From Myxococcus sp. RHSTA-1-4 (GTDB lineage: Bacteria; Myxococcota; Myxococcia; Myxococcales; Myxococcaceae), in the NCBI RefSeq assembly GCF_020037125.1, contig NZ_JAIQDG010000023.1, positions 62,001 through 126,000 on the forward strand: a stretch of DNA of 64,000 nt, written 5' to 3'. This document shows positions 4,083 to 55,449 of this stretch, one piece after another. Positions within the stretch are counted from its first letter, which is position 1, and each line of letters opens with the position of its first letter. A program made the translations under genes and the position numbers. The notes beneath the pieces are model-generated. The model was not told where the DNA came from. It was given only the letters and a program-made list of their open reading frames with translations, and made no database searches.

Positions 4083-4289
4083 GCCCCTCCGCCTGCTCGC
4101 ATGCACCGGGCACACACCGTGACACCGCATGCTACCGGACGGTGGAACCCCGTGACTGCCCTGCCATGCCAGTGCGTTGCCAGCCGGTGGACGATGCAAG
4201 TGTCCGCCGGCGTGCGTGCGGCTTGCGAGGCCTGGAGCCACTGCAAATCTTGCACGGCGTAGGACGGGGTCGGGATGGGAGGTCGGGTC

Positions 4290-5261: not shown

Positions 5262-5475
5262 CCCGTCGCCTCCCGGACGTCCGCGCTCCGTGGGAGCCCG
5301 GCACACCCGATGAGTGCTCGCCAGCACGCCTGCTCCACTTTCGTGCAGCGGACGGGGCGTGACATTCGGGTGTGTGAGGACCCAATGAGCGGCTACCCGA
5401 GGCAGGGGGCCGACATCATGGTTAGCCGGCTCGCCGGGGGTATGGGCCAGGCGGGCGGACGACGGGAGACGCGCC

Positions 5476-6678
5476 GTGAGACGAGCGCAGGTGAACGGGA
5501 GGACACGAAGCCGGGGGCTCGGGCTGCTGCTGGCGGTGGCCTGTGCCGCGGCCGGTTGCGACAAGGGCCCGGAGGGCGCGGCGGCGCGGCGGCCCGAGGC
5601 GCCGGTGGTGACGCTCGGGCAGGAGAACGTGGCCCGCGCGGAGCTGCGTGAGCTGCAATCCGGCCCTGGCATCTCCGGCACGCTGCAGGCGCGCACGGCG
5701 GCCGCGGTGCGCGCGGAGGTGGGCGGCACCATCCTCGGCATCAAGGCCGAGCAGGGGCAGGTGGTGAAGAAGGGCCAGGAGCTGGCGCGAATCGAGGATG
5801 CCACCCTGCGGGACCAGGTCATCGCCGCCCGCACGGCCACTCGGACGGCCAGCAGCGCGGTGCAGGTGGCCCGGGCCGAGGAGGAGCGCAGCGCGAAGCT
5901 GGCGAAGGAAGGCGTCATCACCCAGCGGGACTTCGAGCGGGCCCAGCTCGCGGTGTCCCAGGCGGAGGCCCAGCTCGCGGAGGCCCGCTCGCGGCTGGCC
6001 CTGGCGCAAGAGCAGCTCGGCCGCGCGCGCATCACCGCGCCCTTCGACGGCGTGGTGAGCGAGCGCCAGGCGAGCGAGGGCGACGTCGTGCAGCCCGGCG
6101 CGCCCCTCTTCACCATCGTGGACCCGCGCACCCTGCGGCTGGAGGCCTCCGTGCCCGCGGCCCTGCTGGCGCAGGTGAAGGTGGGCACGCCCGTGGAGTT
6201 CCAGGTCACCGGTCATGCCGACAACACCGTCAGCGGCAAGGTGGAGCGCATCAACCCCGTGGTGGACCCCGCCACCGGCCAGGTGCGCATCTACGTGGCC
6301 ATTCCCAACACGGACCTCCACCTCCTGGCGGGCCTCTTCGCGGAGGGGCGCGTGGCCTCGGAGGCGAAGCAGGCGCTCGCGGTGCCGCTGGACGCCGTCG
6401 TCGAGTCCAACGGTGAGCCGGGGGTGCTGCGCATCCAGGACGGGCGCGTGCAGCGCGTGCCCGTCACGCTGGGGCTGCGGGACGCCGTCGCGCAGCAGGT
6501 GGAGGTCCGCTCCGGGCTGCGGGCGCGAGACGTGGTGGTGCTCGGCTCGGCGCGCGACGCGGTGGGCGAGGGCACTCGCGTGAAGGTGGAGGCGCGGCGC
6601 CCCGAGTCGAAGCCCGTGGAGTCCGAATGGCCGGGCGTGGGCGGCTCGGAAGCGCCGCAGAGGCAGCAGTCCCCCTGA
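5476..6678 (+). CDS. RND efflux periplasmic adaptor (membrane fusion protein)
   Basis: 400 residues, GTG start preceded by GGGAGA at 5464-5469. The signal peptide ends in a lipobox (AAGC, Cys28), as in MexA/AcrA lipoproteins. The first lipoyl half contains GTLQARTAAAVRAEVGG. An alpha-helical hairpin at about 95-175 is rich in Ala/Glu/Gln. The second lipoyl half is ARITAPFDGVVSE, followed by a beta-barrel and a membrane-proximal domain. It links the inner-membrane pump to an outer-membrane channel. The pump gene begins 40 bp downstream on the same strand, so the two form an operon. No TolC-type channel gene follows, so that partner must lie elsewhere. The substrate is not deducible. Confidence 0.93.
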   Translation: MRRAQVNGRTRSRGLGLLLAVACAAAGCDKGPEGAAARRPEAPVVTLGQENVARAELRELQSGPGISGTLQARTAAAVRAEVGGTILGIKAEQGQVVKKGQELARIEDATLRDQVIAARTATRTASSAVQVARAEEERSAKLAKEGVITQRDFERAQLAVSQAEAQLAEARSRLALAQEQLGRARITAPFDGVVSERQASEGDVVQPGAPLFTIVDPRTLRLEASVPAALLAQVKVGTPVEFQVTGHADNTVSGKVERINPVVDPATGQVRIYVAIPNTDLHLLAGLFAEGRVASEAKQALAVPLDAVVESNGEPGVLRIQDGRVQRVPVTLGLRDAVAQQVEVRSGLRARDVVVLGSARDAVGEGTRVKVEARRPESKPVESEWPGVGGSEAPQRQQSP

Positions 6679-6718
6679 GGCCGCTCGCGTTCCATCGCTT
6701 TCCGCCGGGAGTCACCGC

Positions 6719-9700: not shown

Positions 9701-9907
9701 CTGGGTCGCGCGGTGATTGGCGGCGTGATTACGTCCACGCTGCTGACGCTGCTGGTGATTCCGACGGTGTACGAAATCCTGGTGGACGGCCGCACGTGGA
9801 TGGCCCGCAAGCTGCGGAAGCTCTTCCACATGCGTCCCCCGCAGGAGCACGAGCCCCACGGTGGCGGTGGCGAGCCCCGGCCGATGCCTCAGGCTCGTCA
9901 GGAGTGA
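6719..9907 (+). CDS. RND family efflux permease (HAE1/AcrB-like)
   Basis: 1062 residues, GTG start behind CGGGAG. The architecture is the classic RND duplication: TM1 at about 10-30, a large periplasmic loop, TM2-6, a second helix-loop unit, TM7, a second loop and TM8-12. Proton-relay residues are present: the Asp pair 402-403 in LIDDAIVVREN (TM4) and Lys933 in GIVAKNAILLIDFAK (TM10). FISDFAIKRPI at the N-terminus is the usual family start. It uses proton-motive force to export amphiphilic compounds through the adaptor encoded just upstream. The preserved Asp-Asp and Lys place it in the hydrophobe (HAE) branch rather than the metal (HME) branch. The C-terminus carries a His/Pro-rich tail. Confidence 0.95.
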   Translation: MFISDFAIKRPIVTITAMVALVVFGLVALWQLETDEFPDVQQPVINVTIAYPGASPDTVEREIVEPIEDAVFAISGVDPKETTSSATDGLATFTVFFDFEKDIQEASQDIRDAISSKRADLPQEMEEPILTRFDPADQPIVSLTLTSEQLDVAALSRVADPLVVGELRSVPGVAQADVVGEVEREMTVQVRPGALQAAGLSVAEVVGALQAQNLAAPVGRINAPLAESSIRLKGRLAGAEDFRNMVVATRGGQVIRLGQVADVFVGAEEPRTLALFDGAQAVGIDVLKAKGYSTTEVADAVRERVEALQRRLPAGVKLAIVRDAGVRVEQAVHNVQSALLEGALLTVLVVFVFLNSWRSTVITGLALPVSVLAAFISVWAFGFTLNTMSLLGLTLAIGILIDDAIVVRENIVRHIEMGKDHYTASREGTSEIGLAVSATTFSIVAVFVPVAFMYGVAGQWFKPFALTIACAVLVSLFVSFSLDPMLSAYWPDPQVEQAARRDFISRALTRFNRWFDRQAQRYKRVIAWALDHRLAMVLVAVGSLVGALGLQATVGGAGFVPVSDRAEVEVLVETPPGSSLDYTRRKVEEVVRITRAHPEVAYTYSTIGVPLPLSAPGVDQALVYVRLTPKGDRDVSQDALGRIFRDELRVIGGAKVSVFTSGFGGAFKQIQLELRGPDQRMLTQLAEQVRKEMEAVPGAVDVGLSTRGQKPELEVELNRGLAGQLGVTVGQVAQVLRPAFAGLDVGDWVDPIGETRDVMLRLAPEARDSPSDLAQLPIAVAGGQGGTPRLVPLGQVADIRQTLGPAQITHLDRERVINIQANTQGRSLTEVMTDIQERVARVQLPAGYTLTTGGESADQAEVFMRVFIALGVAVVLMYLILVIQFGSFLDPLAILLSLPLSLIGVVLALLVTGDTLNIMSLIGVILLMGIVAKNAILLIDFAKWSHAKGLPLRDALIEAGRIRLRPIIMTTLALVAGMVPVAIGAGEGGDFRAPLGRAVIGGVITSTLLTLLVIPTVYEILVDGRTWMARKLRKLFHMRPPQEHEPHGGGGEPRPMPQARQE

Positions 9908-9991
9908 GCGAGGGCGCTGGATGTTGAACGTCTGCCCTTCAGGAGGGTTGGCGGCTCGCGCGGGGGCCCGTAGGGTCGGCTGTCTCCCGTC

Positions 9992-11959
9992 ATGGCTCCT
10001 GCCCCGCTGCCCGAAGACCACCACCGACTCGTCACCGAGGCCCTGGCCGCGCTCGACGTCCGCAATCTGGTGCTGAGCATCCACGACCCCAGCTTCCCGC
10101 AACTCCCGGGGGAGGACCTCGGCTGGGGCTCGCCCTACTCGGAGGGAGCGGCGCGCTTCCTCGGCTTCGCGCGGGAGCTGGGCTTCAACGGCATCCAGCT
10201 GGGCCCGCAGGGGCAGACCACCGAGTTCAACGCCTCGCCGTACGACGCCACGCTCTTCTCTCGCAACGTCCTCGACGTGTCGCTCGCTGTGCTGGAGGAG
10301 CCCGAGCCCTGGGGCGCCCTGCTGCCGTGCGGGCGCGTGGCCGGCCTCGCCGCCAGCCGCCCGAGGAGCTCCGGCCCGGGGGAGCGCTACCGCCACGCGT
10401 TCCGCACGCAGCTCGCGTTGCTGCACGAGGCGTGGGAGTCGTTCCGCCGCCAGCGCGAGGCTCCGGATGCCTCCTCCGCCATCCGCGAGCTGGCCGCTCG
10501 CTTCGCCACCTTCCGGCGGCAGCACCACGCGTGGCTGCTCCGCGACGCCCTCTTCGACGTGCTGTGCGAGGAGAAGCATGAGCCGGACTGGCGTCGCTGG
10601 GCGGACTCGCTGGACGGGCGGTTGTGGAGCCCCCGCCGCGAGGAGGAAGCCTCGGCCGCCGCGCGCGTCGTCGAGCTGGAGGCCCGGTACGCGGAGTCGC
10701 TGGAGCGCTACGCCTTCTTCCAGTTCCTCGTGCACGTCCAGCACCAGGCGCTGCGCGAGCGCGTGGTGGGCGGCGGGCTGAAGCTGTACGGCGACCTGCA
10801 GATTGGCTTCTCACCGCGAGACACATGGGCGTGGCAGGGGCTGTTCCTGCGCAAGTACCTCATGGGCGCGCCGCCCAGCCGCACCAACCCGGATGGCCAG
10901 CCGTGGAACTACCCGGTGCTGGACCCGGAGCAGTACTTCGAGCCGGACTACGCCGGAGTGGCCGCCGGGCAGCGGGCCGGGCCGGTGCTGCGCTTCATGA
11001 ACGCGCGCATGGACAAGATGCTCGGCGAGTACGACGGGCTGCGGCTGGACCACCCGCACGGGCTGGTGTGTCCGTGGGTGTACCGCTCGGACGTGCCGGA
11101 CGCACTGTGGGCGGTGCAGCACGGGGCGCGTCTCTTCTCCTCGCCGGACCTGCCGGACCACCCGGACCTGGCGCGCTACGCGCTGGTGCACCCGGAGCAG
11201 CTGGACCGCACGGTGCCCCGGTACGCGGATGGGGAGGTGAAGTCCCTCACCCCGGAGCAGGTGCGCCGCTACAGCGTCCTCTTCGACACGGTGGTGGGTG
11301 CGGCAAGGCGCAACGGGCGCGACCTGGGCGACCTGCTGAGCGAGGTGCTGAGCACGCTGCCGTATCCGCTGGAGCGCGTGCTGGCGCAGTACGGGCTGGG
11401 GCGCTTCCGGGTGACGCAGAAGGCCGACCTCAACAACCCCGCGGACGTGTACCGCAGTGAGAACGTGGCGCCCGAGGACTGGGTGATGGTGGGCAACCAC
11501 GACACCAAGTCCCTGTGGCGGCTGGTGGGCGAGTGGCAGTGGCGCGGGACGCTGAAGGCGCAGGCGGACTACCTCGCGTGGCGCCTGTGTCCGGAAGAAG
11601 CAGGGCGCGAGGCCTTCGCGAGGAGACTGGCGGAGGACCCGGGACAGCTCGCGCAGGCGAAGCTGGCGGACCTGTTCGCCAGCCGGGCGCGCAACGTCAT
11701 GGTGTTCTTCACGGACCTGCTGGGGATGACGGAGACGTACAACACGCCCGGCACGGTGGACCCGCGGAACTGGTCCCTGCGCGTGCCGGAGGACTGGGCG
11801 CGCGTGTACCGCGAGCGGCTCCGGGGCGACGCGGCGCTGAACATGCCCGCGGTGCTGGCCATGGCGCTGCGGGCACGAGGCGCGGGGACCCGCGACCGGT
11901 ACCCCACACTGCTCGCGGGGCTGGACCGGCTGGCGGAGGAGCTCCGCGGCGGAAGGTAG
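9992..11959 (+). CDS. malQ: 4-alpha-glucanotransferase (amylomaltase, GH77)
   Basis: 655 residues. It transfers alpha-1,4-glucan segments between malto-oligosaccharides. The catalytic triad of GH77 can be read: nucleophile Asp353 in RLDHPHG; acid/base Glu451 in LLSEVLS, which aligns with the family's IAEDLG followed by the FGLPGMRVLQ-like segment YGLGRFRVTQ; and the transition-state Asp504 in VGNHDTKS. It also has YGDLQIGFSPRDTW and ASPYDATLFSRN. Its length is between the short amylomaltases (about 500) and enterobacterial MalQ (about 690). It lies 84 bp behind the efflux pump without an obvious functional link. Together with treZ at 38.8 kb it points to glycogen/malto-oligosaccharide use. 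No strong ribosome site is visible before this ATG. Confidence 0.88.
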   Translation: MAPAPLPEDHHRLVTEALAALDVRNLVLSIHDPSFPQLPGEDLGWGSPYSEGAARFLGFARELGFNGIQLGPQGQTTEFNASPYDATLFSRNVLDVSLAVLEEPEPWGALLPCGRVAGLAASRPRSSGPGERYRHAFRTQLALLHEAWESFRRQREAPDASSAIRELAARFATFRRQHHAWLLRDALFDVLCEEKHEPDWRRWADSLDGRLWSPRREEEASAAARVVELEARYAESLERYAFFQFLVHVQHQALRERVVGGGLKLYGDLQIGFSPRDTWAWQGLFLRKYLMGAPPSRTNPDGQPWNYPVLDPEQYFEPDYAGVAAGQRAGPVLRFMNARMDKMLGEYDGLRLDHPHGLVCPWVYRSDVPDALWAVQHGARLFSSPDLPDHPDLARYALVHPEQLDRTVPRYADGEVKSLTPEQVRRYSVLFDTVVGAARRNGRDLGDLLSEVLSTLPYPLERVLAQYGLGRFRVTQKADLNNPADVYRSENVAPEDWVMVGNHDTKSLWRLVGEWQWRGTLKAQADYLAWRLCPEEAGREAFARRLAEDPGQLAQAKLADLFASRARNVMVFFTDLLGMTETYNTPGTVDPRNWSLRVPEDWARVYRERLRGDAALNMPAVLAMALRARGAGTRDRYPTLLAGLDRLAEELRGGR

Positions 11960-12032
11960 GCTCACGCGGGCGCAGCCGGCACGCCGAGCCCCAGCGCGGC
12001 CCCGCGCGGACCGCGCCGAGAACCGCGACACC

Positions 12033-12830
12033 TCAGTGCTGCACGTCCACCACGAGCCGGGCCGGCTCGCGCAGCTCCATGACCCGGTACTTGTTGGGCT
12101 TCTTGTTGCCGAGCACCCACGTCACCTCGCCCTCGAAGTCACAGGTGCGCTCCAGCTCCACGAGGATGGGGAGGTTGGGCTTCATCTCCCGCTCGGCGAC
12201 GGTTGCCTGACCCTGGTCATTGTGAGCGCGCGCGGGCGTGAAGCGCACCTGCAGCCAACCCTGGCCGGCCACCGGCGTCGGGTCGCCCGAGCCGCACTGG
12301 ATGATGGGCGTGTCCACGTACTCCAGCGCGTAGCCGGGGAGCTGCGTCCCCTCGAACTCGAACACCACGCGGTCATAGTCCGCGTGCTGCCCCGCGCGCA
12401 CCGAGCGCAGCGTCACGGGCATCCCCGGACGGCGCTTCAGCTCCACGTTGCCCGCGGTCCACTCGCGGTTCTTCAGGTCCTCTGGGGGCTGGTTCGCCGC
12501 GTTCGCCGGAGCCGGCACGGGAGCCGGAGCCGGAGCCGTGCCGCCCGTGGATCCCTGGGGCGCCGTCTCGGGAGCGTCGTCCCCCGTCTGCACGGGAGCC
12601 CCCGTGCCACCATCGGCGGGGACGACGACATGCACGGGCGGGTTGGCGGCGGCCTCGCCTTCACGGGGGACGGTGCCCTCGGGCGGACGAGAGGGTTGGG
12701 CGGGCGCGTCATCCGGCGCGGGAAGCTCTGCGGCCGGGTGCGTCGGAGGTGGCTCCTCCTTCTTGCACCCGGCGACTCCGATGCATCCAGCCAGCAACAG
12801 CGACGTCAGCCCGCGTCCAGACCGCTTCAT
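12033..12830 (-). CDS. AMIN-like domain lipoprotein with Pro-rich linker
   Basis: 265 residues. The signal peptide has two possible lipobox cysteines (Cys16 in LLAGC or Cys22 in VAGC; CKKEE fits Cys22). A long Pro/Ala/Glu-rich linker (about 25-120) probably spans the periplasm. The C-terminal half (about 130-265) has the beta-strand pattern YDRVVFEFEG, WLQVRFTPA, TWVLGNKKP and ARLVVDVQH of the AMIN-like domain, which is related to cell-wall-targeting AMIN domains. No catalytic residues are seen. A peptidoglycan- or envelope-binding role is an inference. It converges with malQ and lies in the same direction as the DUF1028 gene upstream (126-bp gap). Confidence 0.72.
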   Translation of the reverse strand: MKRSGRGLTSLLLAGCIGVAGCKKEEPPPTHPAAELPAPDDAPAQPSRPPEGTVPREGEAAANPPVHVVVPADGGTGAPVQTGDDAPETAPQGSTGGTAPAPAPVPAPANAANQPPEDLKNREWTAGNVELKRRPGMPVTLRSVRAGQHADYDRVVFEFEGTQLPGYALEYVDTPIIQCGSGDPTPVAGQGWLQVRFTPARAHNDQGQATVAEREMKPNLPILVELERTCDFEGEVTWVLGNKKPNKYRVMELREPARLVVDVQH

Positions 12831-12955
12831 CGTCCTCTCCTGGCGGCCCGCTCGGTCAGGGCCGGCGGCCTCCCTCTCTCACGAGCGGCGCCCGGGTGCC
12901 AGCGTCACGATGTGGAAGCCGTGGGGACGGAGTGCCCTCCAGGAACTTCACACCC

Positions 12956-13963
12956 TCACTGCGCCGGAGGCGTCGCCGGGGCGAGCGCGTCGAGGTCCGT
13001 GTTGCGCAGGAAGCGCACGAGCACGCCGTCAATCTTCCGCACGCCGTCCTCCACCACGGTGGGCTTGTCGTTGAAGCAGTTGTTCCAGGTGAAGTCAGCC
13101 AGGGCCTTCTCGGCGCCCGCGGGCCAGGTGCCGTCCAGCGGACCGTCGTAGTACCCGAGCTTGCGCAGCGCGCGCTTCATGAACCGGGCGGTGTCCTTGT
13201 CCAGCGTCACGAGGTCCGCCGCATACGTCGGAGCGAGGACTCCCTGGTGGCGGTTGAGCTGCACCTCCAAATCCCGCAGCGCCGTCATGCTCGCGTGCAC
13301 GGAGGCGTCGGCGAGCACGTGCGTGAAGAAGGCGGAGGGATTCGTGCTGTTCCACACGCGGATGACGCCGGAGCGCTCGCCGTTGCGGTCACCCCCCACG
13401 CGCGCGCCGGCCTTGAGCGAGGCGAGCAGCCGCTGCGGCAGGCTGCCCCGGGCTTGCTGGTAGGCCTCCGCCATGACGTCGCACATCTCACCGGTGCTCA
13501 TGTTGTTGGCCTGCACCACGAAGGTGCTGCCCTTGACGGAGCAGGTGAAGTGGCTCGTCTCCGCGCCGGAGCGCTGGCCCACCGTCACGGTGCCGTCCGG
13601 GTTCAGCTTCACTGCGGCGAGCTGGCGGATGGAGGCCAGCGGGTCCGCCGTGAGCACGGTGTCGATGGCGTCCTGCGGCGCCTCGCCCGAGTCGATGCGC
13701 GCGATGACGGCGTTCGCGTCATCCACCGAGGGCAGCGCCATGGTGGCCACCGCGAGGTCCGAGCGGCCATAGGGCACCAGCCCGCTGACACCGCTGGGGA
13801 ACGAGATGACGGCCATGCCGCAGGACTGCTCCACCGGGTCGCACGCGATGACGGCGCGCGTGCCGAAGATGCGCGTGTTGATGGGACGGTCCGCCGCGGC
13901 CGCGGTGGAGGACGTCACCAGGAGGGACGACAGGACCAGCAGGCCGCGCTTGAGGAGCTTCAT
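12956..13963 (-). CDS. Secreted DUF1028 protein with C-terminal peptidoglycan-binding-like domain
   Basis: 335 residues with a Sec signal peptide (about 1-24, cleavage after STAAAA). The mature protein matches DUF1028, an Ntn-hydrolase-like fold: IACDPVEQSCGMAVISFP near the N-terminus, then a stretch on repeated trials (DAIDTVLTADPLASIRQLAAV) and SFVVQANNM-type strands. A C-terminal segment, FMKRALRKLGYYDGPLDGTW, is the typical peptidoglycan-binding repeat (hydrophobic core plus LGYYDGPxDG). The DUF1028 activity is unknown. The fusion suggests a wall-associated hydrolase (inference). It may be co-transcribed with the AMIN-like lipoprotein that follows, which would suit a joint role at the cell wall. 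Confidence 0.8.
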   Translation of the reverse strand: MKLLKRGLLVLSSLLVTSSTAAAADRPINTRIFGTRAVIACDPVEQSCGMAVISFPSGVSGLVPYGRSDLAVATMALPSVDDANAVIARIDSGEAPQDAIDTVLTADPLASIRQLAAVKLNPDGTVTVGQRSGAETSHFTCSVKGSTFVVQANNMSTGEMCDVMAEAYQQARGSLPQRLLASLKAGARVGGDRNGERSGVIRVWNSTNPSAFFTHVLADASVHASMTALRDLEVQLNRHQGVLAPTYAADLVTLDKDTARFMKRALRKLGYYDGPLDGTWPAGAEKALADFTWNNCFNDKPTVVEDGVRKIDGVLVRFLRNTDLDALAPATPPAQ

Positions 13964-14386
13964 GGTCTACCTCGGGACAAGGGGCTCCCGTCCGGCGCGC
14001 GAGGTCCGCGTGGCCGTGGGTGGCCCTCAGGGGTGTGGGATTGAAGCGCCGGGAGCCGTGCCGCCCGTCCCCGGCGCTGTCGCCATGAACAACGACGCGC
14101 CGCCGGGAGGCATATCGGATGGCCGGAGCGCGCGGGAATACGGGTGGGACAGGCGGGACGGGGAACGCGGAAATCCCACCTGTCCGGAGAAGCCCAGGGG
14201 GCCCGGGTGCCCTGCGCTCGGCGGGCCGGCCGGCGGAAGCCCTCTCCCGGAAAATTGAAGCGGCGGCACCCCCGCGAGCGCATGCAAATGCATGAGACAC
14301 GGGGGGGCGTGCCGCGGATATGGTGCGCGCCCGGCCGCAGTCCGCGTGGCCCCCCTCAACGCGAACGAACCGGAGAGCAACACCTC
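13964..14386. other. Divergent intergenic region
   Basis: 423 bp between the leftward DUF1028 gene and the rightward aminotransferase gene, so it should hold two promoters. I see no convincing -35/-10 pair. The only distinctive element is the short inverted repeat at 14281-14294, listed separately. No small gene with good codon use is evident. Confidence 0.5.
14281..14294. promoter_or_regulatory. Inverted repeat CATGCA-AA-TGCATG, possible operator
   Basis: A perfect 6-bp inverted repeat with a 2-bp spacer in a locally AT-richer patch, ending about 92 bp before the aminotransferase start. Symmetry and position suit a dimeric repressor or activator site. No regulator can be assigned. Confidence 0.35.
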
Positions 14387-47443: not shown

Positions 47444-48373
47444 TCAGGCGGCCTGTGGGCGGCCCCGCAGGATTTCGATGAGCACGTCCTCCAGCCGCGA
47501 GTGGCGCGTCTCCACGTCGGCGATGGGCTGCCCTTCCGCGTACAGCGCGCGGAGCAGCTCGCCGGAGGGCGCGCAGCCCTCGCGCTCGACGTAGGTGAGG
47601 GTGCGGCCGTCCTCGGAGAGGCGTGCGGAGAAGCGGCGGCCGGCCTCGGGCATGGCGGCCTGCGGGTGCTCGAAGGTGACGACGACGCGGCGCTCGCCGA
47701 AGCGGCGAAGCAGGGTGGCCTTGTCCTCCACCATGAGGAGGCGGCCCTCGTTGATGATGCCCACGCGGTCCGCCAGCTCCTCGGCCTCCTCCAGGTAGTG
47801 CGTCGTGAGGACGATGGTGGTGCCCTCCGCGGCCAGCTTGCGCACGTAGGTCCACAAGTCGCGGCGCAGCTCCACGTCCACGCCGGCGGTGGGCTCGTCC
47901 AGGAAGACGAGGCGGGGCTTGTGCACCAGCGCCTTGGCGATGAGGAGCCGGCGCTTCATGCCGCCGGACAGGGCGCGCGTCATGGCGTCCTTCTTCGCCT
48001 GGAGGTTGAGCGCGGTGAGCACCTCGTCGATGCGCGCATCGTCCCGGCGGCGGCCGTAGAAGCCGAGCTGGATGCGCAGGGACTCGGCCACGGAGAAGAA
48101 CGGGTCGAAGTTGATTTCCTGCGGCACCAGCCCGATTTCGTAGCGGGGGGACACCGGGTCCTTGTCCAGGTCCTGCCCGAAGACGCGGATGGTGCCGGCG
48201 GTCTTCTTCACCAGGCCGCACACGCTGCCAATCATCGTCGTCTTGCCGGCGCCGTTGGGACCCAGCAGGGCGAAGATTTCACCCGGACGGATGGTGAGGT
48301 CCAGCGAGTGAAGCGCGGTGAAGTCGCCGTAGCGCTTGGTGAGTCCCTGGAGCTCGAGGGCGGGGGTGGACAT
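47444..48373 (-). CDS. ABC transporter ATP-binding protein (exporter)
   Basis: 309 residues from ATG 48373. It has a single ATPase domain: Walker [11 protein letters not shown]-loop VPQEINFD, signature LSGGMKRR, Walker B LVFLDEPTAG and H-loop TTHYLEE. A C-terminal extension of about 85 residues (FEHPQAAMPEAGRRF) is typical of the DrrA/YadG exporter type. It powers the permease encoded directly downstream (29-bp gap). It is divergent from the ceramidase fusion gene, with 157 bp between the starts. Confidence 0.94.
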   Translation of the reverse strand: MSTPALELQGLTKRYGDFTALHSLDLTIRPGEIFALLGPNGAGKTTMIGSVCGLVKKTAGTIRVFGQDLDKDPVSPRYEIGLVPQEINFDPFFSVAESLRIQLGFYGRRRDDARIDEVLTALNLQAKKDAMTRALSGGMKRRLLIAKALVHKPRLVFLDEPTAGVDVELRRDLWTYVRKLAAEGTTIVLTTHYLEEAEELADRVGIINEGRLLMVEDKATLLRRFGERRVVVTFEHPQAAMPEAGRRFSARLSEDGRTLTYVEREGCAPSGELLRALYAEGQPIADVETRHSRLEDVLIEILRGRPQAA

Positions 48374-48530
48374 GGCGGCGCTTCCTCTAACACCTTCGAG
48401 GTTTCCGCGCCTGCTCCTCTTCCGTCCGGTAGCGGGCCCACGCCGGGCTCAATCCCAGTCCGGCGATTGCGGCATGTCGGCGTGGCTTGTTAGAGCACCC
48501 ACTCCAGGGCCGAGCAGGGGGGGAGTCCAC

Positions 48531-51500
48531 ATGTCGGAAGTCACCGGAGCGTCAGCCCCATTCAAGCGGGAGCCCCGGCCCGGGCAGAGGGCGCGGTGCG
48601 GCGTCGCCGCGGTGCCCTTCCTGTTGCCGGACGGCATTGCCATGGCGGGCTACTCGCTGATGGGCAAGGTCGGAAGGCGGGCGGCGTGGGAGCTGTGCGC
48701 GCGGGCCATGGTGCTGGAGGACGACGCGGGGCACGTGGTGGCGTTCGTGACGGCGGACCTGATGTCGGCCTCGCGCTACCTCCACGAGCGCGCCGCGGCG
48801 CTGACTCGGCAGGGCGCCTCCGGACTGGACGTGCACCAGATTGTGCTGATGGGCACGCACACGCACACCGCGCCCGGCGGCTTCTACGGCAACAGCCTCT
48901 ACGACACCATCGCCCAGAGCGCGCCGGGCTTCCAGCGCCGGCTCGCGGATGACCTCGCGCGGGCCATCGCCGACGCCATCGAGGAGGCGTGGCGGACGGC
49001 CCGCCCGGCGAGCATCTCCCTCCAGACGGAAGTCCTCTGGGGCGTGAGCCGCAACCGGAGCCTCGCGCCGTTCCGGGAGAATCCCGAGGTGATGCACTGG
49101 AACACGGACTCCGCGTTCCCCGGCTACCGGCCCGGCGGCGGCCCCCTCTCCGCCGAGCAGCTCGCGGTGGACCCTCGCGTGGTCATCCTGTCCGCGTACG
49201 ACGACGAAGGGCGCCGCATCGGCACGTTCGCCACCTTCGGCTGTCACAACACGGCGCTGGGCATGGACCAGAAGTACTACGCGCCGGACTGGACGGGCAT
49301 CGCCGCGTCGCTCGTGGAGCAGGACGCGCGGTATGGCGCTCCCATCACCCTCGTCGGACTGTCGGGCGCCGGTGACGCCTCGCCGACGCCTCCCGGCGAT
49401 GATGCGTCCCACCACGAGGGCCCGAAGAAGCAGGGCGTGGACCTGGCGCGCTTCGTCGGCGCGAGGGTGGCGCGCACCATTCTCGCGGCACATGCCCGGC
49501 CTCCTCGGCTGGTGCCCATCACCCTCAAGAGCTGGTACGAGGACTGGGTGCCCCGGGCGGGCTCCAACGTCACGGGCGTGCCGGCGACGCGGCTGGCGAA
49601 GTGGGAGCTGGGCGCGCCCGCGCTCGCGGGTGCCGAGGACGGCCGCTCCCTTCTCTACCCGGGGCTGGTCCGCGAGGGGATGCGGGGCGGGACGTTCTCT
49701 CCCGTCAGCCCGCAGTTCCCCAAGGTGCCCGCGCTCGGCGTGGTCGGCTCGCTCCTGAAGAACCTGGCCGACCTCAGCCCCTCGCCTGGCCACGCGCTGC
49801 ATGTGGTGCAGGTGGCGGACCATGTCTTCGCCACCGTGCCGGGCGAGCCCACCGCCTGCGCCGCCTTCCAGCTCGAGTCCGCCATGCTCCGGTTGCCCGG
49901 CGTGGCGACCGCGTCGGTGCTGGGCTACGCGGGGGACTACGCGGGCTACTTCACCACGCGGCCGGAGTTCCTCCTCCAGCACTACGAGGGCGCCTCCACC
50001 CTCTATGGCTCGGAGAGCGTCAACCACCTCGCGGCCCGGCTGGCGCGGCTCGCGCGGGGTGCGCCCTTCGCCGCGCGGGGCCGGGAGGCCGCCGCCTTTG
50101 CACTGGAGGCGGCGGAGCGCCCGGAGGCGCCCGCCACCCTGAGGGCGATGCGCGCGCCAGCCCCCGTGGACCCGGGCGCGGCCCTCGCTTCGGGAGGCCA
50201 CCGGGACGGGCGCGGTGTCTTCGCCTGGTGGGCCTGGCCCGCGGCGCATGCGCCGGAGGACGCGCTCCAGGTCCAGCTCGAGCTGCGCGCCAGCGGGCAG
50301 CCCGAGGAGGTCTACCGCCTGGCTCCGGTGGAGGTGCGGCTGCTGGACGAGCCCCTCCTCGGTGAGGAGCGCCGCGTGTGGCAGGCGCGCTTCGAGCTCG
50401 ACGTACCGCTGGAGGGGCTGTCCATCGTCGCCGTTCCCCGCCCACCGGCGCCCTTCCAGGCCCCGGACGTGGTGATTGAGCGCGCGCCGGAGCTGGAGGC
50501 CGCCCCCGCGGAGCCGCGGGTGGTGCTGGAGCTGTCGCCCTTCGCCGCCGCGTCCGCCGTCGCGCCCACGCTGGGCGAGGCGCGCTCGCGGGCGCGGGTG
50601 ATGCCGCCCGTGGAGATGGAGGACGAGGGTGTCGCTCCCATGGGCCCCGCCGAGGTGGAGGAGCTGGTGCGCGAGGCGGAGCGCGACCCCGTCGGGGTGG
50701 GCCGGATTCTCTACGCGCGCATCGATGCCGGCGCGGCCCCCACCGACGACGAGGCCGCCGAGCTGGCGCGAAAGACAGTCTCGGAGCTGCGGGCGCGCGC
50801 CGTGACACCCGAGGGAGCCCTGGTGCTGGAGGCTGTCGCGGCACCGGCGATGAAGGCCGCTCCCCCCGTCCGGCTGCCGGAGGACTTCACGTTCGAGGGG
50901 TATGACCCGGAGGCCATCCCCATCGACCCGGCCGACACCCGGTTCGAGACGAAGGCGGACTGGCTCTCCTACGTCGTCTTCACCGGAGGGCTGTACCACA
51001 CCCGCCTGCTCGAGCTGGACCCGGTCCGGCGCAACGGCGCGTTCTACTCGCGGTTCACCTATCCGCTGGCCTCGCCGACGGCCCAGGCGCCGGTGGAGGT
51101 CGCGCTGTTCTCCGACTTCGGCAACGGGCTGGCCCATGCGCGCTACATCGCGCGGCAGCTCATCGGGCACCCGTACGCCATCCACCTGGGAGACGTGTAC
51201 TACGCCGGCAGGCGCAAGGAGTTCGAGGAGTACTTCGCCGGGCCGCTGGAGCCCCTGCTCGCGGACACGGAGTTGTTCATGCTCGCCGGCAACCACGAGA
51301 TGTACAGCCGGGGCACGACGTTCCACGCGTACCTGGACCAGAAGCGCGCACGCTACCCGGAGCGGCAGAAGCAGGAGGGCGCGAGCTTCCGGCTCGTCTC
51401 GGAGCGCTTCCAGATTGTGGGCATGGACACCGCCTGGTGGAAGTACGGGCGGGTGGACCCGGAGGTGCTCGAGCTGGTGCGCGGGTGGCTGCGCGAGGGC

Positions 51501-51968
51501 CGCGGGGAGCGCATGAACATCCTGCTCACCTCCGAGCACGGCTGGGACTTCGGCGGCGGCAAGACGACGGAGCTGTTGAGCGAGGACCTGCGCGGCATCG
51601 CCGACGGCGGCCTGGTGGACCTCTGGTTCTGGGGGAACGTGCACCACGCCGCGCTCTACGAGCCCTCGCGGTGGGGCCCGTTCGTCGCGAGCTGCATCGG
51701 CCACGCGGGCTACCCGTATTACACGCTCAATCCGGCGGACGCGCCGAAGAGCGCCGCGCCGGTGCGCTGGGCCGAGTACGAGCACCGCTTCTCCGGCTGG
51801 AAGGCCGCGGGTGGAGGCCCCCTGCGCGAGGACATGGGCAACAACGGCTGGTGCAAGCTGCGCCTCTTGCACGACGGCACGGCCGAGCTCGTCTACATCG
51901 ACTGGCGCGGTCGCGAGCGCCACCGCGCGAGGGTGGCCCGGACGCCGCGGGGTGTCAGCCTGACGTGA
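48531..51968 (+). CDS. Neutral ceramidase - metallophosphoesterase fusion
   Basis: 1145 residues from ATG 48531, with GGGGGGAG 6 bp upstream. Residues about 20-430 match neutral/alkaline ceramidase: zinc ligands His110 and His112 in MGTHTHTAPGGFYG, later FGCHNTALG, and nucleophile Ser284 in GAGDASPTP, like the family's GDxSP. A beta-rich part (about 540-650) may be its C-terminal domain, followed by a Glu/Ala-rich linker (to about 800). Residues about 855-1115 are a calcineurin-like phosphoesterase: Asp862 in FSDFG, Asp888 in LGDVYYAG, GNHE 920-923, SEHGWD and His1038-His1039 in WGNVHH. It could deacylate ceramide and remove a phosphate group, i.e. act on sphingolipids. There is no signal peptide, unlike secreted ceramidases. 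The last 14 bp overlap the convergent histidine kinase gene. Confidence 0.87.
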   Translation: MSEVTGASAPFKREPRPGQRARCGVAAVPFLLPDGIAMAGYSLMGKVGRRAAWELCARAMVLEDDAGHVVAFVTADLMSASRYLHERAAALTRQGASGLDVHQIVLMGTHTHTAPGGFYGNSLYDTIAQSAPGFQRRLADDLARAIADAIEEAWRTARPASISLQTEVLWGVSRNRSLAPFRENPEVMHWNTDSAFPGYRPGGGPLSAEQLAVDPRVVILSAYDDEGRRIGTFATFGCHNTALGMDQKYYAPDWTGIAASLVEQDARYGAPITLVGLSGAGDASPTPPGDDASHHEGPKKQGVDLARFVGARVARTILAAHARPPRLVPITLKSWYEDWVPRAGSNVTGVPATRLAKWELGAPALAGAEDGRSLLYPGLVREGMRGGTFSPVSPQFPKVPALGVVGSLLKNLADLSPSPGHALHVVQVADHVFATVPGEPTACAAFQLESAMLRLPGVATASVLGYAGDYAGYFTTRPEFLLQHYEGASTLYGSESVNHLAARLARLARGAPFAARGREAAAFALEAAERPEAPATLRAMRAPAPVDPGAALASGGHRDGRGVFAWWAWPAAHAPEDALQVQLELRASGQPEEVYRLAPVEVRLLDEPLLGEERRVWQARFELDVPLEGLSIVAVPRPPAPFQAPDVVIERAPELEAAPAEPRVVLELSPFAAASAVAPTLGEARSRARVMPPVEMEDEGVAPMGPAEVEELVREAERDPVGVGRILYARIDAGAAPTDDEAAELARKTVSELRARAVTPEGALVLEAVAAPAMKAAPPVRLPEDFTFEGYDPEAIPIDPADTRFETKADWLSYVVFTGGLYHTRLLELDPVRRNGAFYSRFTYPLASPTAQAPVEVALFSDFGNGLAHARYIARQLIGHPYAIHLGDVYYAGRRKEFEEYFAGPLEPLLADTELFMLAGNHEMYSRGTTFHAYLDQKRARYPERQKQEGASFRLVSERFQIVGMDTAWWKYGRVDPEVLELVRGWLREGRGERMNILLTSEHGWDFGGGKTTELLSEDLRGIADGGLVDLWFWGNVHHAALYEPSRWGPFVASCIGHAGYPYYTLNPADAPKSAAPVRWAEYEHRFSGWKAAGGGPLREDMGNNGWCKLRLLHDGTAELVYIDWRGRERHRARVARTPRGVSLT

Positions 51969-53964
51969 CGGCTCCGCCGGACGTTCGTGTCAGGGGCAGG
52001 CGCACCGTGAAGGTGGAGCCCTGGCCCGGCGTGGACTCAGCCTGGATGGAGCCCTCCATCGCGTCGAGGAGCTGCCGGCTGATGTAGAGCCCCAGCCCGA
52101 GCCCGCCGTAGTGCCGCTCCGACACGGCGCGCTCGAACTTGCCGAAGATGCGCGACAGGTCCTCCTGGGAGATGCCGATGCCCTGGTCCTTCACCGACAC
52201 CACGGCCATCGTCCCCTCCCGCCAGAGCCTCACCTCCACCGGCTTGCCGCCGCCGTAGCGCACGGCGTTGCTCAGCAGGTTCACCACCACCTGCTCCACC
52301 CGCAGCGGGTCCCACACCCCCACCAGCGGCTCCTCGGGGCCCTGCACGGTGATGCTGGCGCCCAGCCGCCGGAACTCGTCGCCGAAGGACTCCGCGAGCT
52401 GCCCCACCATGAGGCCCAGGTCCACCTCCCTCGGCTCCAGGCTCAGCCGCCCCGTCGTCAGCCGGGACACGTCCAGCAGGGTGTAGATGAGCCCGGCGAG
52501 CCGGCCCACCTGCCGCTCCAGCGCCTCGGAGCGGGAGGCGAGCTGTTCGGCCACCTCGGGGCTGGCGCGGGCCAGCTGGCGCAGGAGGAGCTGCAGGTGC
52601 AGACGCAGGCTCGTCAGGGGCGTGCGCAGCTCGTGCGCGGCCACGGTGAGGAACTCGTCCCGCGCCCGCACGGCCTGCTGGGCCTCCAGCAGCAGGCGGG
52701 CGCGCTCGCTCTCCGCCCGCCGCGCCTCGCTGATGTCCGCATGGGTGCCAATCCACTCCCGGATGGAGCCGTCCGGGGCGAGCACCGGCACGGCCCGCAC
52801 CAGGAACTGGCGGTACTCGCCGTCGTGCCGGCGCACGCGGCTCTCCAGCCGCAGGGGCTCCTTGCGCGCCACCGCCCGCCGCCACTCCGCCAGGACGTGC
52901 TCCCGGTCCTCGGGGTGCACGGCCTCAAGCCAGCCCTTCGGCGCCGTGGACGTCTTCACGTCCTGTCCGGTGTAGGCCATCCAGCTCGCCGACTCCGGCC
53001 GGACCATGCCGGTGGCGTCCGTCGTCCACACCATCTGCGTGGTGGCCTCCACCAGCGAGCGGAAGCGCTGCTCGCTCAGGTGGATGTCCTGCAGCGCCTT
53101 CTTGAACCCGGTGACGTCGAAGAAGGAGGAGACCGTCATGTACGGCTCGGCCTCTCCGGGCCGGCGCAGGGGCTGGGCGTTGATGGACAGCCAGATGAGC
53201 GAGCCGTCGGGCCGGCGCACTCCCATGGGCACGCTCCTCACCGGCTCGCCGGTGCGCAGCGCCACCATGGCGGGGTGCTCGGACCCCGGGAAGGGGGAGC
53301 CATCCTCGTGGATGGCCCGCCACCGAGGGTCCATGGAGGTGCGGCCCGCCAACTGGTCCACCGACAGCCCGAGGATGTGCTCGGCGCTCGCGTTGGCGGT
53401 GACGATGTCCCCCTCCCGGCTCTGCACGACGACGCCCTCGTCGAGCGCGGCGAGGATGGCCCGGTAGCGAGCCTCGCTCTCGCCGAGCGCCTGGGCCGCC
53501 GCCTCCGCGCGAGCCCGGGCGGCGCGCTCGCGTGCCAGCAACTCCTTCTGCTGCTCCTGGAGCTGGTGCCGCGCGGTGATGTCCTCCACGAAGGCATACA
53601 CCCCGGTGATGACGGCATCACGGCGCGAAGGATGGAAGGTGACGCAGTAGGTGTGCCGTGCCTCGGGGCGCGCCTCGGGGGCGAGGGCAAGCACCTCACG
53701 GTCCACGGAGCGGCCCGTGTCGAGCACCCGGCGCGCGCAGCGGAGGAACTGCTCGGCGGCGGGAGAGGGCGGGAGCACCTCCGAGGCGCGCCGGCCGAGA
53801 CAGGCCTCGCGGGGCTGTCCATCGGGAGTCATCAGCCGCATGGCCACCAGCCGCTCATTGAGCTCCACGAAGCGCAACTCCGTGTCCAGCACCGCGATGC
53901 CCAGGGGAGCCCCTTCCAGCAGCTCCTCGAAGCGCTCCCTGAGTTCTTGCGGCTCCAGCGACAT
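51955..53964 (-). CDS. PAS-domain sensor histidine kinase
   Basis: 669 residues from ATG 53964 (GGAGG about 6 bp upstream). There is no membrane helix, so it is cytoplasmic. Three PAS-type domains lie in line (about 10-140, 165-285 and 290-420). The last has a PAC segment, DGEYRQFLVRAVPVLAPDGS. A coiled coil leads to HisKA with His444 in VAAHELRTPLTSL. HATPase_c has an N box, NLLSNAVRYGGG, then DQGIGIS and GLGLGLYISRQ. It autophosphorylates and passes phosphate to a response regulator not encoded next to it (orphan kinase, common in myxobacteria). It overlaps the ceramidase-fusion gene by 14 bp at the 3' ends. Confidence 0.92.
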   Translation of the reverse strand: MSLEPQELRERFEELLEGAPLGIAVLDTELRFVELNERLVAMRLMTPDGQPREACLGRRASEVLPPSPAAEQFLRCARRVLDTGRSVDREVLALAPEARPEARHTYCVTFHPSRRDAVITGVYAFVEDITARHQLQEQQKELLARERAARARAEAAAQALGESEARYRAILAALDEGVVVQSREGDIVTANASAEHILGLSVDQLAGRTSMDPRWRAIHEDGSPFPGSEHPAMVALRTGEPVRSVPMGVRRPDGSLIWLSINAQPLRRPGEAEPYMTVSSFFDVTGFKKALQDIHLSEQRFRSLVEATTQMVWTTDATGMVRPESASWMAYTGQDVKTSTAPKGWLEAVHPEDREHVLAEWRRAVARKEPLRLESRVRRHDGEYRQFLVRAVPVLAPDGSIREWIGTHADISEARRAESERARLLLEAQQAVRARDEFLTVAAHELRTPLTSLRLHLQLLLRQLARASPEVAEQLASRSEALERQVGRLAGLIYTLLDVSRLTTGRLSLEPREVDLGLMVGQLAESFGDEFRRLGASITVQGPEEPLVGVWDPLRVEQVVVNLLSNAVRYGGGKPVEVRLWREGTMAVVSVKDQGIGISQEDLSRIFGKFERAVSERHYGGLGLGLYISRQLLDAMEGSIQAESTPGQGSTFTVRLPLTRTSGGAVTSG

Positions 53965-54249
53965 GGTCAGCCTCCACCCCGAAGAGCAGTCCCCCAGGCA
54001 CTTGCAAAAGCATGGCAATGCCGGGCCCCGGGGGGCATTCACGAGGAGCAGCCGGGGGCTCGGTGTGCCTGACCGCGTCCACCAGGACTGCCCTCCGGGG
54101 AGGGTGGTCCGAGCAGTGGACGCCGCGCAGCCTCGCTCTGGCTCCGGGCGGGGCGCGGGTGCGCGTGCCGCTCCTCACGCCGGCTATGGCCACTCTCTAT
54201 TCATCGGGGCACGGAGCCCCGCCCTGCCGTCCGTGATTGGAGGTGCTTC

Positions 54250-55449
54250 ATGGCCCGGGCATTCGACATCACCACCACGTCACCCTCGCTGCGCCTGGGA
54301 GGAGACCGGCGGGCCGAGGTGGCGTTCACCGTCACCAACTCGCTCGGCCGGCACGTCCGGGGCAGGGCCGTGGTCGTTCCCGAAGGACCGACGCCCCCCG
54401 AGTGGTTCTCCCTCGCGGGAGAGGCCGAGCGGGAGTTCCCCCCGAATGGCACGCACGTCTTCCAGGTCCAGGTGGCCGTTCCACCGTCACAGGGGGCGGG
54501 CGAGCATGCCTTCCACCTGCTGGTGGCGGACCAGGCCAACCCCGACGAGCATTTCGCTGACGGGCCCACGGTGTCGGTCCGGGTGCCCGCCCCGGTGGTG
54601 GCTCCCAAGAAGAAGATACCCTGGTGGATACCCGTGTCCGTCGCGGCGGTCCTCCTCATCGCGGTGGTGACGGGGGTGCTGGTGCATGACGGGGAAAAGG
54701 ACGAGGGCACGGGAGGCTCCGGCCCGGTGGCGGAGGAGCCCCAGGCCGAGCCGCCGCCTCCGGCACCGGTGCTGACCTTCAACGGGACGACCTCCTTCGT
54801 GGACCTGGGCCAGCCCCTGCCCCTGGAAATCACCGGGCCCATCACCCTGGAGGCCTGGATTCGCCCGACGAGCAACACCGCCATCCAGAACATCGTGGCC
54901 CGGGGCTTCGTCACGGCTCCCAACGGGGAAATCTTCCTACGCATCCTGTTCGGCAACTACCAGACCGGCTCCTACTCGGAGAGCCAGCCGTTTGGTGGCG
55001 TCATCTCGAGCATGCCGGCGCAGGACCTGAACAACTGGGTCCACGTGGCCAGCGTCTATGATGGTGAGAAGTGGCGGCTCTACCGCAATGGTGAATTGCT
55101 GGCCGAGAGTCCCGCTCAAGGGAGCGGCGGCCTTCCCATGAACGCCCGCTGGGCCATTGGCTCCAAGGGCGGCGGAGGCGAGCGCACCTTCAATGGCAAC
55201 ATCCGCGACGTGCGCATCTGGAGTGTCGCCCGCACCCAGGAACAGATTCGCGAGGGCATGAACGACCCTCCGGACGAGGGCGCGGAGGGGCTGTCTGGCT
55301 ATTGGCCGATGGATGAGAAGAGCGGCGGGCGTGTCCTCGACCACAGCGGCAACGAGGCCCATGGCTTCATCCATAACGCGCTGAGGGGGCCGTCCAGCGC
55401 GCCCCCGGTGACAACGCCTGACGCGGGAACCGCCGCGCCCGGCCAGTAG
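54250..55449 (+). CDS. Membrane-anchored LamG-domain protein
   Basis: 399 residues, ATG behind GGAGG. The N-terminal part (about 1-115; FDITTTSPSLRLGGDRRAEVAFTVTN) is a beta-sandwich rather like an Ig-like or MSP module and has no signal peptide. One membrane helix follows (IPWWIPVSVAAVLLIAVVTG, about 123-142) after a Lys-rich stop. Outside, a Glu/Pro linker leads to a LamG/concanavalin-like domain (about 178-370) with FVDLGQPLPLEITGPITLEAW, WVHVASVYDG, WRLYRNGELL and NGNIRDVRIWS. This places the N-terminal module in the cytoplasm and LamG outside. LamG domains bind glycans or proteins. It is divergent from the histidine kinase gene. Confidence 0.8.
   Translation: MARAFDITTTSPSLRLGGDRRAEVAFTVTNSLGRHVRGRAVVVPEGPTPPEWFSLAGEAEREFPPNGTHVFQVQVAVPPSQGAGEHAFHLLVADQANPDEHFADGPTVSVRVPAPVVAPKKKIPWWIPVSVAAVLLIAVVTGVLVHDGEKDEGTGGSGPVAEEPQAEPPPPAPVLTFNGTTSFVDLGQPLPLEITGPITLEAWIRPTSNTAIQNIVARGFVTAPNGEIFLRILFGNYQTGSYSESQPFGGVISSMPAQDLNNWVHVASVYDGEKWRLYRNGELLAESPAQGSGGLPMNARWAIGSKGGGGERTFNGNIRDVRIWSVARTQEQIREGMNDPPDEGAEGLSGYWPMDEKSGGRVLDHSGNEAHGFIHNALRGPSSAPPVTTPDAGTAAPGQ

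What the first reader, a model, noticed from the sequence alone, without database searches (positions are those of the whole stretch)
48531..51968. Neutral ceramidase fused to a calcineurin-like phosphoesterase
Both halves keep their catalytic motifs (Ser284 in GDASP plus His110/His112; Asp862, Asp888, GNHE 920-923, His1038/1039). Neutral ceramidases are normally single, secreted enzymes; this one has no signal peptide and carries a second hydrolase. Some myxobacteria make ceramides and other sphingolipids, so a bifunctional enzyme that strips both the acyl chain and a phosphate head group would be a compact turnover or remodelling machine. An alternative is that the phosphoesterase acts on nucleotides or phosphoproteins.
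Basis: partly seen in the sequence, partly recalled or inferred. Interest (0 to 1): 0.82.

Follow-up and report, generated by a model that had tools for sequence, protein, structure and literature searches.

The report
Ceramidase-like amidase fused to degenerate phosphatase
A soil predator bacterium makes one large protein, found so far only in it and one close relative, that joins an apparently working fat-cutting (ceramidase-like) enzyme to a phosphatase-shaped part whose metal site is partly worn away, so it is probably a regulated lipid enzyme rather than a proven two-in-one cutter.

Summary
Window 48531-51968 (+) is one 1145-aa gene: a PF04734 (ceramidase) half and a PF00149 (calcineurin-like) half. 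The same fusion is in Pyxidicoccus fallax DSM 14698 (82-87% identity) and was not seen in any other genome searched (2 of 96 family, 2 of 195 phylum genomes, own included); both halves look to be under purifying selection.

The interpretation needs correcting. The N half keeps the Zn and catalytic residues, but belongs to a PF04734 clade, leaderless where tested, apart from the secreted neutral ceramidases, three of which this genome also carries. The C half is purple-acid-phosphatase-like but keeps only five of seven metal ligands: motif IV His is Ser1001, the first His of GHxH is Asn1036. Its nearest relatives, stand-alone proteins in 34 of 96 family genomes, have lost the site in all 30 examined; 12 of 12 more distant homologues keep it.

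Best reading: a cytoplasmic N-acyl-lipid amidase with a degenerating phosphatase domain that is regulatory, ligand-binding or weakly active. A bifunctional enzyme is not excluded but is not what the metal site suggests. New variant of known families; moderate interest.

The parts
48531..51968 (+). Fused gene, 1145 aa: PF04734 ceramidase-like domain + Ig-like region + helical linker + PAP-like metallophosphoesterase domain
   Evidence: orthologue L111:10001-13552 in Pyxidicoccus fallax
48517..48525 (+). G-rich Shine-Dalgarno-like stretch before the ATG at 48531
   Evidence: sequence read directly; start matched by the P. fallax start
48588..50066 (+). Catalytic ceramidase-fold domain, residues 20-512
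   Evidence: PF04734; model pLDDT mostly 65-96 in ten-residue blocks here, with dips to 43 and 58; 2zws Z 40.4 and 4wgk Z 39.5
48858..48866 (+). H110 and H112 (= H97, H99 of 2zws)
   Evidence: pairwise alignment; invariant in 12 of 12
49245..49247 (+). H239 (= H204 of 2zws), Zn ligand
   Evidence: Zn-ligand role recalled
49380..49382 (+). S284 (GDASP), the Ser column of neutral ceramidases; S in 23, D in 9, T in 8, other in 6 of 46 family members
49845..49847 (+). E439 (= E411 of 2zws), Zn ligand
   Evidence: role recalled
49947..49949 (+). Y473 (= Y448 of 2zws), Zn ligand
   Evidence: role recalled
50193..50480 (+). Beta-rich region about residues 555-650 in the place of the Ig-like C-terminal domain of neutral ceramidases (domain name recalled)
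   Evidence: VIA alignments to 2zws run to model residue 676, to 4wgk to 669; low pLDDT here, so tentative
50598..50930 (+). [quoted passage not shown]
   Evidence: alignment A2; model
51048..51965 (+). PAP-like metallophosphoesterase domain, residues 840-1145
   Evidence: PF00149; weak model with PAP Z 18.7
51114..51116 (+). D862 (motif I)
51192..51203 (+). D888 and Y891 (motif II, GDVYY)
51288..51299 (+). G920-E923 (motif III, GNHE)
51531..51539 (+). S1001-E1002-H1003: S1001 stands where intact homologues have the motif IV His
51633..51647 (+). G1035-H1039 (GNVHH): N1036 replaces the first His of GHxH; H1038 kept
47444..48373 (-). Divergent ABC-transporter ATPase gene upstream (label from its Walker motif, not scanned); 94% identical in P. 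fallax
51955..54042 (-). Convergent sensor histidine kinase-like gene downstream (label by reading, not scanned); no counterpart found by blastp at the P. fallax locus
54250..55449 (+). Downstream gene that marks the far side of the variable slot (LamG-like by reading, not scanned); 72% in P. fallax, 64% in G079

Best explanation
The protein is a cytoplasmic Zn-dependent amidase of the PF04734 fold that cleaves an N-acyl amide lipid (ceramide-like; exact substrate unknown), with a purple-acid-phosphatase-fold domain fused to its C terminus. The fusion joined a PF04734 protein without signal peptide to a paralogue of a Myxococcaceae stand-alone PAP-like protein, in or before the ancestor of the window species and Pyxidicoccus fallax. 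The phosphatase domain retains a full M1-type ligand set (D862, D888, Y891, H1038) and the GNHE loop but has lost both M2-type histidines (S1001, N1036), so it most likely acts as a ligand-binding or regulatory module, or at best a mononuclear, weak phosphatase. Shown: fusion, orthologue, dN/dS below 1, retained and lost residues, fold of the N half, clades. Supported but on a weak model: PAP fold of the C half. Inferred: cytoplasmic location, amidase activity, lipid substrate, the role of the C half, and the assignment of residues to M1/M2 sites (by analogy with plant PAP, recalled).
For: Fusion in two species only among those searched, dN/dS 0.19 in the N catalytic part and 0.36 in the phosphatase part. 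Six Zn/catalytic columns conserved in 46 of 46 family rows and aligned to 2zws; fold Z 40 to neutral ceramidases. No hydrophobic leader in the window protein or in the 11 of 16 clade mates tested. PAP fold by Foldseek 1.5e-10 and VIA Z 18.7, with GAP50, a PAP-fold glideosome anchor, at Z 17.1. Motif table: 12 of 12 intact homologues keep all ligands; 30 of 30 stand-alone relatives lose motif II Asp, the motif III Asn-His pair (one keeps the Asn alone) and the first motif V His; the fused pair loses two His. Fused pair and stand-alones are sister groups, 99/98 and 100/100. The fused region 685-1141 aligns to the stand-alone proteins, part of their extension included.
Against: No activity has been measured. 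The model of the C half is weak (mean pLDDT 52.5), so site geometry is not established; E1002 or H1003 might replace the lost His and N1036 might ligate. dN/dS below 1 in the C half would also fit a working enzyme, and the difference between the halves was not tested for significance. The Ser column being Asp, Thr, Asn or Ala in relatives means Ser284 proves little.
Confidence: 0.5

Rival explanations
1. Bifunctional sphingolipid turnover enzyme: one active site removes the acyl chain, the other a phosphate-containing head group, as acid sphingomyelinase (also a metallophosphoesterase) followed by ceramidase would.
For: Acid sphingomyelinase is among fold matches of the C half (Z about 13), though far below PAP. 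Two Planctomycetota relatives of the N half have a metallophosphoesterase gene one or two genes away, with a DUF900 hydrolase: L114 (MPE 3829-5064, N 5085-7094, DUF900 7125-8093) and L115 (N 9905-11893, DUF900 11763-13064, MPE 13092-14243, PhoD-like 7661-9112); the two MPEs are related, E 2e-41, and are MPEs by motif, since Pfam gave at best 0.047. Serine palmitoyltransferase of Myxococcus xanthus is listed in PMC9386255 (passages).
Against: Two of seven metal ligands replaced. MPE neighbours of PF04734 genes are not significantly enriched: my count is 5 of 97 adjacent genes against 2 of 132 control genes, Fisher p 0.14. No sphingolipid gene recognised next door, by reading only. No paper found on such a fusion.
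Confidence: 0.22
2. Effector of a conflict (defence or programmed death) system: the C half descends from a calcineurin-type family used as an effector domain beside TIR, CHAT, caspase-like and trypsin-like proteins; the amidase half would damage own or invader lipids.
For: Some intact homologues have such neighbours: TIR - MPE - CHAT - CHAT on an Agrobacterium Ti plasmid, MPE - trypsin-like - caspase-like in G079, caspase-like - MPE on a viral contig (caspase-like labels by reading). Calcineurin-like domains are listed as effectors of such systems (PMC8195603, passages). The gene sits in a slot whose content differs between relatives.
Against: Those homologues are only 25-28% identical and lie outside the clade of the fusion; in other intact homologues I recognised no such neighbours in the 4-5 kb seen, by reading. 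Pfam finds no NTPase, EAD or sensor domain in the protein, PADLOC no hit; neighbours are ABC, histidine-kinase-like and LamG-like genes by reading.
Confidence: 0.13
3. Accidental read-through fusion with a non-functional C half.
For: Partly lost metal site; higher dN/dS in the C half (0.36) than in the N half (0.19), difference not tested.
Against: The fusion and its exact motif changes are shared by two species 85% identical in this protein, the frame is open, and C-half dN/dS is well below 1.
Confidence: 0.1

Closest known systems
Neutral ceramidase (PF04734; P. aeruginosa 2zws, human 4wgk)
   Same: Fold over residues 17-676 (Z 40), aligned Zn ligands and catalytic residues, Ser284
   Different: No visible signal peptide, separate PF04734 clade, 78.8 bits against an equivalog cut-off of 1200, extra C-terminal domain
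PF04734 proteins without hydrophobic leader, of Archangium and of uncultured Myxococcota, Deltaproteobacteria and Planctomycetota (L112-L119)
   Same: Same 17-row clade (SH-aLRT 99), same six Zn/catalytic residues, no hydrophobic leader
   Different: They are stand-alone, about 585-702 aa; the Archangium type has Asp where the fusion has Ser284
Myxococcaceae stand-alone PAP-like pseudo-phosphatases (34 of 96 family genomes)
   Same: About 40% identity over residues 685-1141 of the fusion, part of their extension included
   Different: Metal site lost in 30 of 30 examined; the fusion keeps five of seven ligands
Purple acid phosphatase / calcineurin-like phosphoesterases
   Same: Fold on a weak model (Z 18.7), motifs I, II, III and the second His of motif V
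   Different: Motif IV His and first motif V His replaced by Ser1001 and Asn1036

Membership tests
PF04734 neutral/alkaline ceramidase family | Pfam score above the curated cut-off | tested here: met
   130.3 bits against 32.1
PF04734 neutral/alkaline ceramidase family | Zn ligands and catalytic residues (H110, H112, H239, E439, Y473, Y485) | tested here: met
   Aligned to H97, H99, H204, E411, Y448, Y460 of 2zws (positions counted by hand along the alignment); conserved in 46 of 46 rows; roles recalled
Neutral ceramidase proper (NCBIfam NF041649 equivalog) | Equivalog score cut-off | tested here: not met
   78.8 bits against 1200
Neutral ceramidase proper | Groups with known neutral ceramidases in a tree | tested here: not met
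   In a different clade from P. aeruginosa L186 and own-genome L001-L003 (quick method, SH-aLRT only)
Neutral ceramidase proper | Secreted (signal peptide) | tested here: not met
   No hydrophobic leader; a hydropathy window, not a dedicated predictor
Neutral ceramidase proper | Hydrolyses ceramide | not testable with these tools
   Needs an assay
Calcineurin-like phosphoesterase / purple acid phosphatase, catalytic | Pfam PF00149 above cut-off | tested here: met
   25.3 bits against 21.5
Calcineurin-like phosphoesterase / purple acid phosphatase, catalytic | PAP fold | tested here: met
   Z 18.7 to 7ov2 and 2bq8, but on a model with mean pLDDT 52.5; the C half of the full-length model did not show it
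Calcineurin-like phosphoesterase / purple acid phosphatase, catalytic | Complete set of seven metal ligands | tested here: not met
   Five of seven kept; S1001 and N1036 replace His
Myxococcaceae stand-alone pseudo-phosphatase family | Sister relation and alignment over most of the stand-alone protein | tested here: met
Conflict-system effector | Linked NTPase, EAD or sensor/protease partner in the protein or beside the gene | tested here: not met
   None in Pfam or PADLOC scans of the protein; neighbours judged by reading only

The most novel reading that the evidence does not exclude
A new kind of cytoplasmic lipid amidase in which a purple-acid-phosphatase fold has been turned into a phospho-ligand sensor that gates a ceramidase-type active site; the pairing of leaderless PF04734 enzymes with metallophosphoesterases would then have arisen more than once (fusion in Pyxidicoccus, gene clusters in Planctomycetota), pointing to an undescribed bacterial N-acyl-lipid turnover route.
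Probability: 0.18. Interest if true: 0.62.

Novelty: new variant of a known kind. Interest (0 to 1): 0.42.

Why it matters
It would be, as far as two text searches of an open-licence library show, an undescribed domain pairing: a ceramidase-type amidase with a phosphatase fold, probably inside the cell. It also brings to light a PAP-like family present in 34 of 96 family genomes yet without a metal site in the 30 examined, and a fused cousin that is only half-way degenerate; that series lets one test how a phosphatase becomes a non-enzyme. The claim of a bifunctional sphingolipid enzyme should not be made from the motifs alone.

Tried and rejected
Single-sequence scan of genome contigs found no relative, because its exact 8-residue patterns do not fit the P. 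fallax protein; the scan with alignment A1 did. Long open frames in 21 loci with PF04734 matches: the match was recovered in 14, none of which holds a GNH(D/E) motif; in 7 loci my script did not recover the match, so those are not cleared, and the regex would miss PhoD-like or degenerate phosphatases. The genome search scored only the best 7, 10, up to 14 or 3 candidates per genome and cut its lists, so weak fusions could be missed. No relative of the C half (residues 801-1145; the N half was not tried) in phages; whole protein against plasmids: only partial matches in 14 records, none covering 80%. PADLOC: no hit for the fused protein up to E 0.1.

Operon link: I thought metallophosphoesterase genes might be enriched next to PF04734 genes outside the canonical clade. 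Count: near 5 of 97 (3 PF00149 by Pfam; plus L114 3829-5064, missed by Pfam at that threshold and judged by motifs; plus the PhoD homologue in L242) against 2 of 132 controls; Fisher p 0.14. Not significant; the near group was also inspected by eye while the control was not, and several loci come from one genome or genus, both of which bias it upwards. The split into canonical and other loci was my own; not all are on the tree. Canonical-ceramidase neighbours: PF00149 not among the 25 families shown for 78 genes, so at most 2. Rows dropped before counting: one second piece of the PF04734 gene (L246), one long protein in the control to fit a limit (L040), eight short antisense ORFs inside the PF04734 gene in the canonical set. 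Gene calls were by a simple GC3 or length script, so some neighbours are spurious.

Structure: the full-length model is good only for the ceramidase half; the C half of that model matched unrelated folds at Z under 5, which I discount. The dedicated C-half model rests on five sequences and pLDDT 52.5; the fold call agrees with the sequence, the site geometry is not usable. Alignment A4 put three phosphoesterases on the wrong half and was not used.

One false lead: a regex 'MPE' call beside the P. fallax gene (L111 14833-16122) is probably a wrong-frame ORF and was not used.

Papers: PMC8195603, PMC5915598, PMC9386255, PMC8949495, PMC7349419, PMC7827237: passages only; PMC7349419 and PMC7827237 gave nothing used, PMC5915598 only the statement that human neutral ceramidase depends on active-site zinc. 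PMC10861553: listing only. The papers on 2zws and 4wgk that I recalled were not held; roles of Zn ligands, of the Ser and the M1/M2 assignment are recalled.
Full report
Check of the observation. The gene is an open frame of 1145 codons at 48531-51968 (+); the frame stays open upstream to a TTG at 48336, but the ATG at 48531 follows a G-rich SD-like stretch and matches the start of the P. fallax orthologue. hmmscan gives PF04734 with its best stretch over residues 36-285 plus a second stretch (130.3 bits) and PF00149 over 857-1038 (25.3 bits).

Genome and distribution. The window lies in contig C50 of an 11.2-Mb assembly. A full-length match exists in one other genome, G057, whose contig (same length and place) is that of Pyxidicoccus fallax DSM 14698 (82-87% identity by halves). 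The fusion was seen in 2 of 96 family, 2 of 145 order (N-half query), 2 of 147 class (C-half query) and 2 of 195 phylum genomes, own genome included; these sets overlap, only the best few candidates per genome were scored and lists of weaker matches were cut. The flanks show a variable slot: ABC ATPase on one side and a LamG-like gene on the other are kept in P. fallax (94%, 72%), with about 9.6 kb of other genes between ABC ATPase and fusion there; G079 has the permease and the LamG-like gene about 4.6 kb apart, and blastp finds no counterpart of the fusion between them. The labels ABC, histidine kinase and LamG are by reading.

Selection. Between window and P. fallax (1145 aligned codons, 84.6% identity) Nei-Gojobori dN/dS is 0.19 for residues 20-512, 0.39 for 513-560, 0.35 for 560-680, 0.41 for 680-800, 0.17 for 801-850, 0.36 for 850-1145 and 0.29 overall. 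Both domains look constrained, the C half less; no significance test was made.

N half. Against 2zws the alignment puts H110, H112, H239, E439, Y473, Y485 on H97, H99, H204, E411, Y448, Y460 and S284 on the GNLSP serine. AlphaFold models this half well and VIA gives Z 40.4 to 2zws and 39.5 to human 4wgk. In a 46-row tree (quick method, SH-aLRT only) the fused pair falls in a 17-row clade (99) with Planctomycetota, Myxococcota, Deltaproteobacteria and Archangium proteins; its nearest rows are L114 (Planctomycetota MAG), L112 and L115 (92). Canonical neutral ceramidases, among them three of the own genome and the P. aeruginosa enzyme, form another clade of 11 rows (100). The six Zn/catalytic columns are kept in 46 of 46; the Ser column is S 23, D 9, T 8, other 6, so Ser is not a constant of the family. 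Own canonical enzymes have Thr and hydrophobic leaders. Maximal 12-residue hydropathy before the domain is 0.26-1.31 in the 11 of 16 clade mates tested and 1.68 in the window protein (its stretch there belongs to the domain's first strand by alignment), against 1.85-2.67 in 10 of the 11 canonical tree rows; L164 (0.14) is the exception.

C half. Residues 685-1141 align at about 40% identity to stand-alone proteins, mostly of about 470-530 aa (starts not settled), in 34 of 96 family genomes, own and P. fallax included; the fusion includes part of their N-terminal extension. In a motif table of 44 sequences, 12 of 12 more distant homologues keep Asp (I), Asp (II), Asn-His (III), His (IV) and GHxH (V). 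All 30 stand-alone relatives examined (30 of 34; four were not fetched) lack motif II Asp, the motif III Asn-His pair (L010 keeps the Asn alone) and the first motif V His; 9 of 30 also lack motif I Asp; 29 of 30 keep the motif IV His; one (L022) keeps the second motif V His. The fused pair keeps D862, D888, Y891, N921, H922 and H1038 and has S1001 and N1036 in place of the two remaining His. The tree places the fused pair as sister to the 30 stand-alones (99/98), both against the intact set (100/100); the treekit output warns of long outgroup branches and odd composition there. So the two lineages degenerated in different ways. The C-half model is poor (pLDDT 52.5) but matches purple acid phosphatases (Foldseek 1.5e-10; VIA Z 18.7, rmsd 3.7, 234 aligned), GAP50 (17.1), PhoD (13.9) and acid sphingomyelinase (about 13). 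GAP50 is a PAP-fold anchor of the glideosome, also reported as an acid phosphatase (PMC8949495, passages); it shows that this fold can serve as a scaffold.

How it most likely works. A cytoplasmic Zn amidase of ceramidase fold, acting on an N-acyl amide lipid, carries a PAP-fold domain with a crippled second metal site. I think the second domain more likely binds a phospho-ligand or partner, or holds the enzyme in place, than that it is an efficient phosphatase (together about 0.5). A wider neighbour link was not significant (5 of 97 against 2 of 132, p 0.14). Some intact relatives of the C half keep company with TIR, CHAT, trypsin- and caspase-like genes, a context described for calcineurin-like effectors, but I see none of these beside the fused gene.

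Comparison and novelty. By fold and residues the N half is a PF04734 member, not a neutral ceramidase by the equivalog or tree tests; the C half is a PAP-fold member, not a catalytic PAP by the ligand test. Text searches for 'neutral ceramidase' with 'metallophosphoesterase' (1 paper, not on a fusion judging by its listing) and with 'calcineurin-like' (0 papers) found no report of the pairing. That library misses most subscription papers. I rate it a new variant of known kinds, interest 0.42.

Noticed in passing
L009-L036, L038:7667-9160, L048:5142-6737: A PAP-like protein family in 34 of 96 family genomes has lost its metal site in all 30 members examined, yet is conserved: a widespread pseudo-phosphatase of unknown role.
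   Followed up: partly
L039-L047, L050, L117-L119, L140: PF04734 proteins of Archangium type have Asp where neutral ceramidases have the Ser: 10 of 10 stand-alone rows, one clade of 9 rows in the tree.
   Followed up: partly
L001, L002, L003: The own genome has three canonical, leader-bearing neutral ceramidases, all with Thr (EGDVTPN) at the Ser position.
   Followed up: no
L114:3829-8093; L115:7661-14243; L242:5628-9091: Two Planctomycetota MAGs share a cluster of LpxH-like phosphoesterase (by motifs), leaderless PF04734 enzyme and DUF900 hydrolase; L115 has a PhoD-like gene too, and L242 has a PhoD homologue beside its PF04734 gene.
   Followed up: partly
L200:2282-8759; L192:1871-5499; L203:3237-5900: Intact homologues of the phosphoesterase half sit beside TIR, CHAT, trypsin-like or caspase-like genes on a Ti plasmid, in a genome of the window's genus and on a viral contig: possible conflict-system effectors.
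   Followed up: partly
L037:2186-4008; L276:10683-11357: The variable slot next to the ABC ATPase holds, in P. fallax, an AAA-like ATPase gene plus a small TOPRIM/DUF4276-like gene; G079 has a similar small gene there. It resembles a defence pair by reading only, not scanned.
   Followed up: no
L116:8498-9619: A Ca-dependent phosphoinositide phospholipase C family gene (PF16670, E 2e-67) is the second gene upstream of a PF04734 gene in a Deltaproteobacteria MAG.
   Followed up: no
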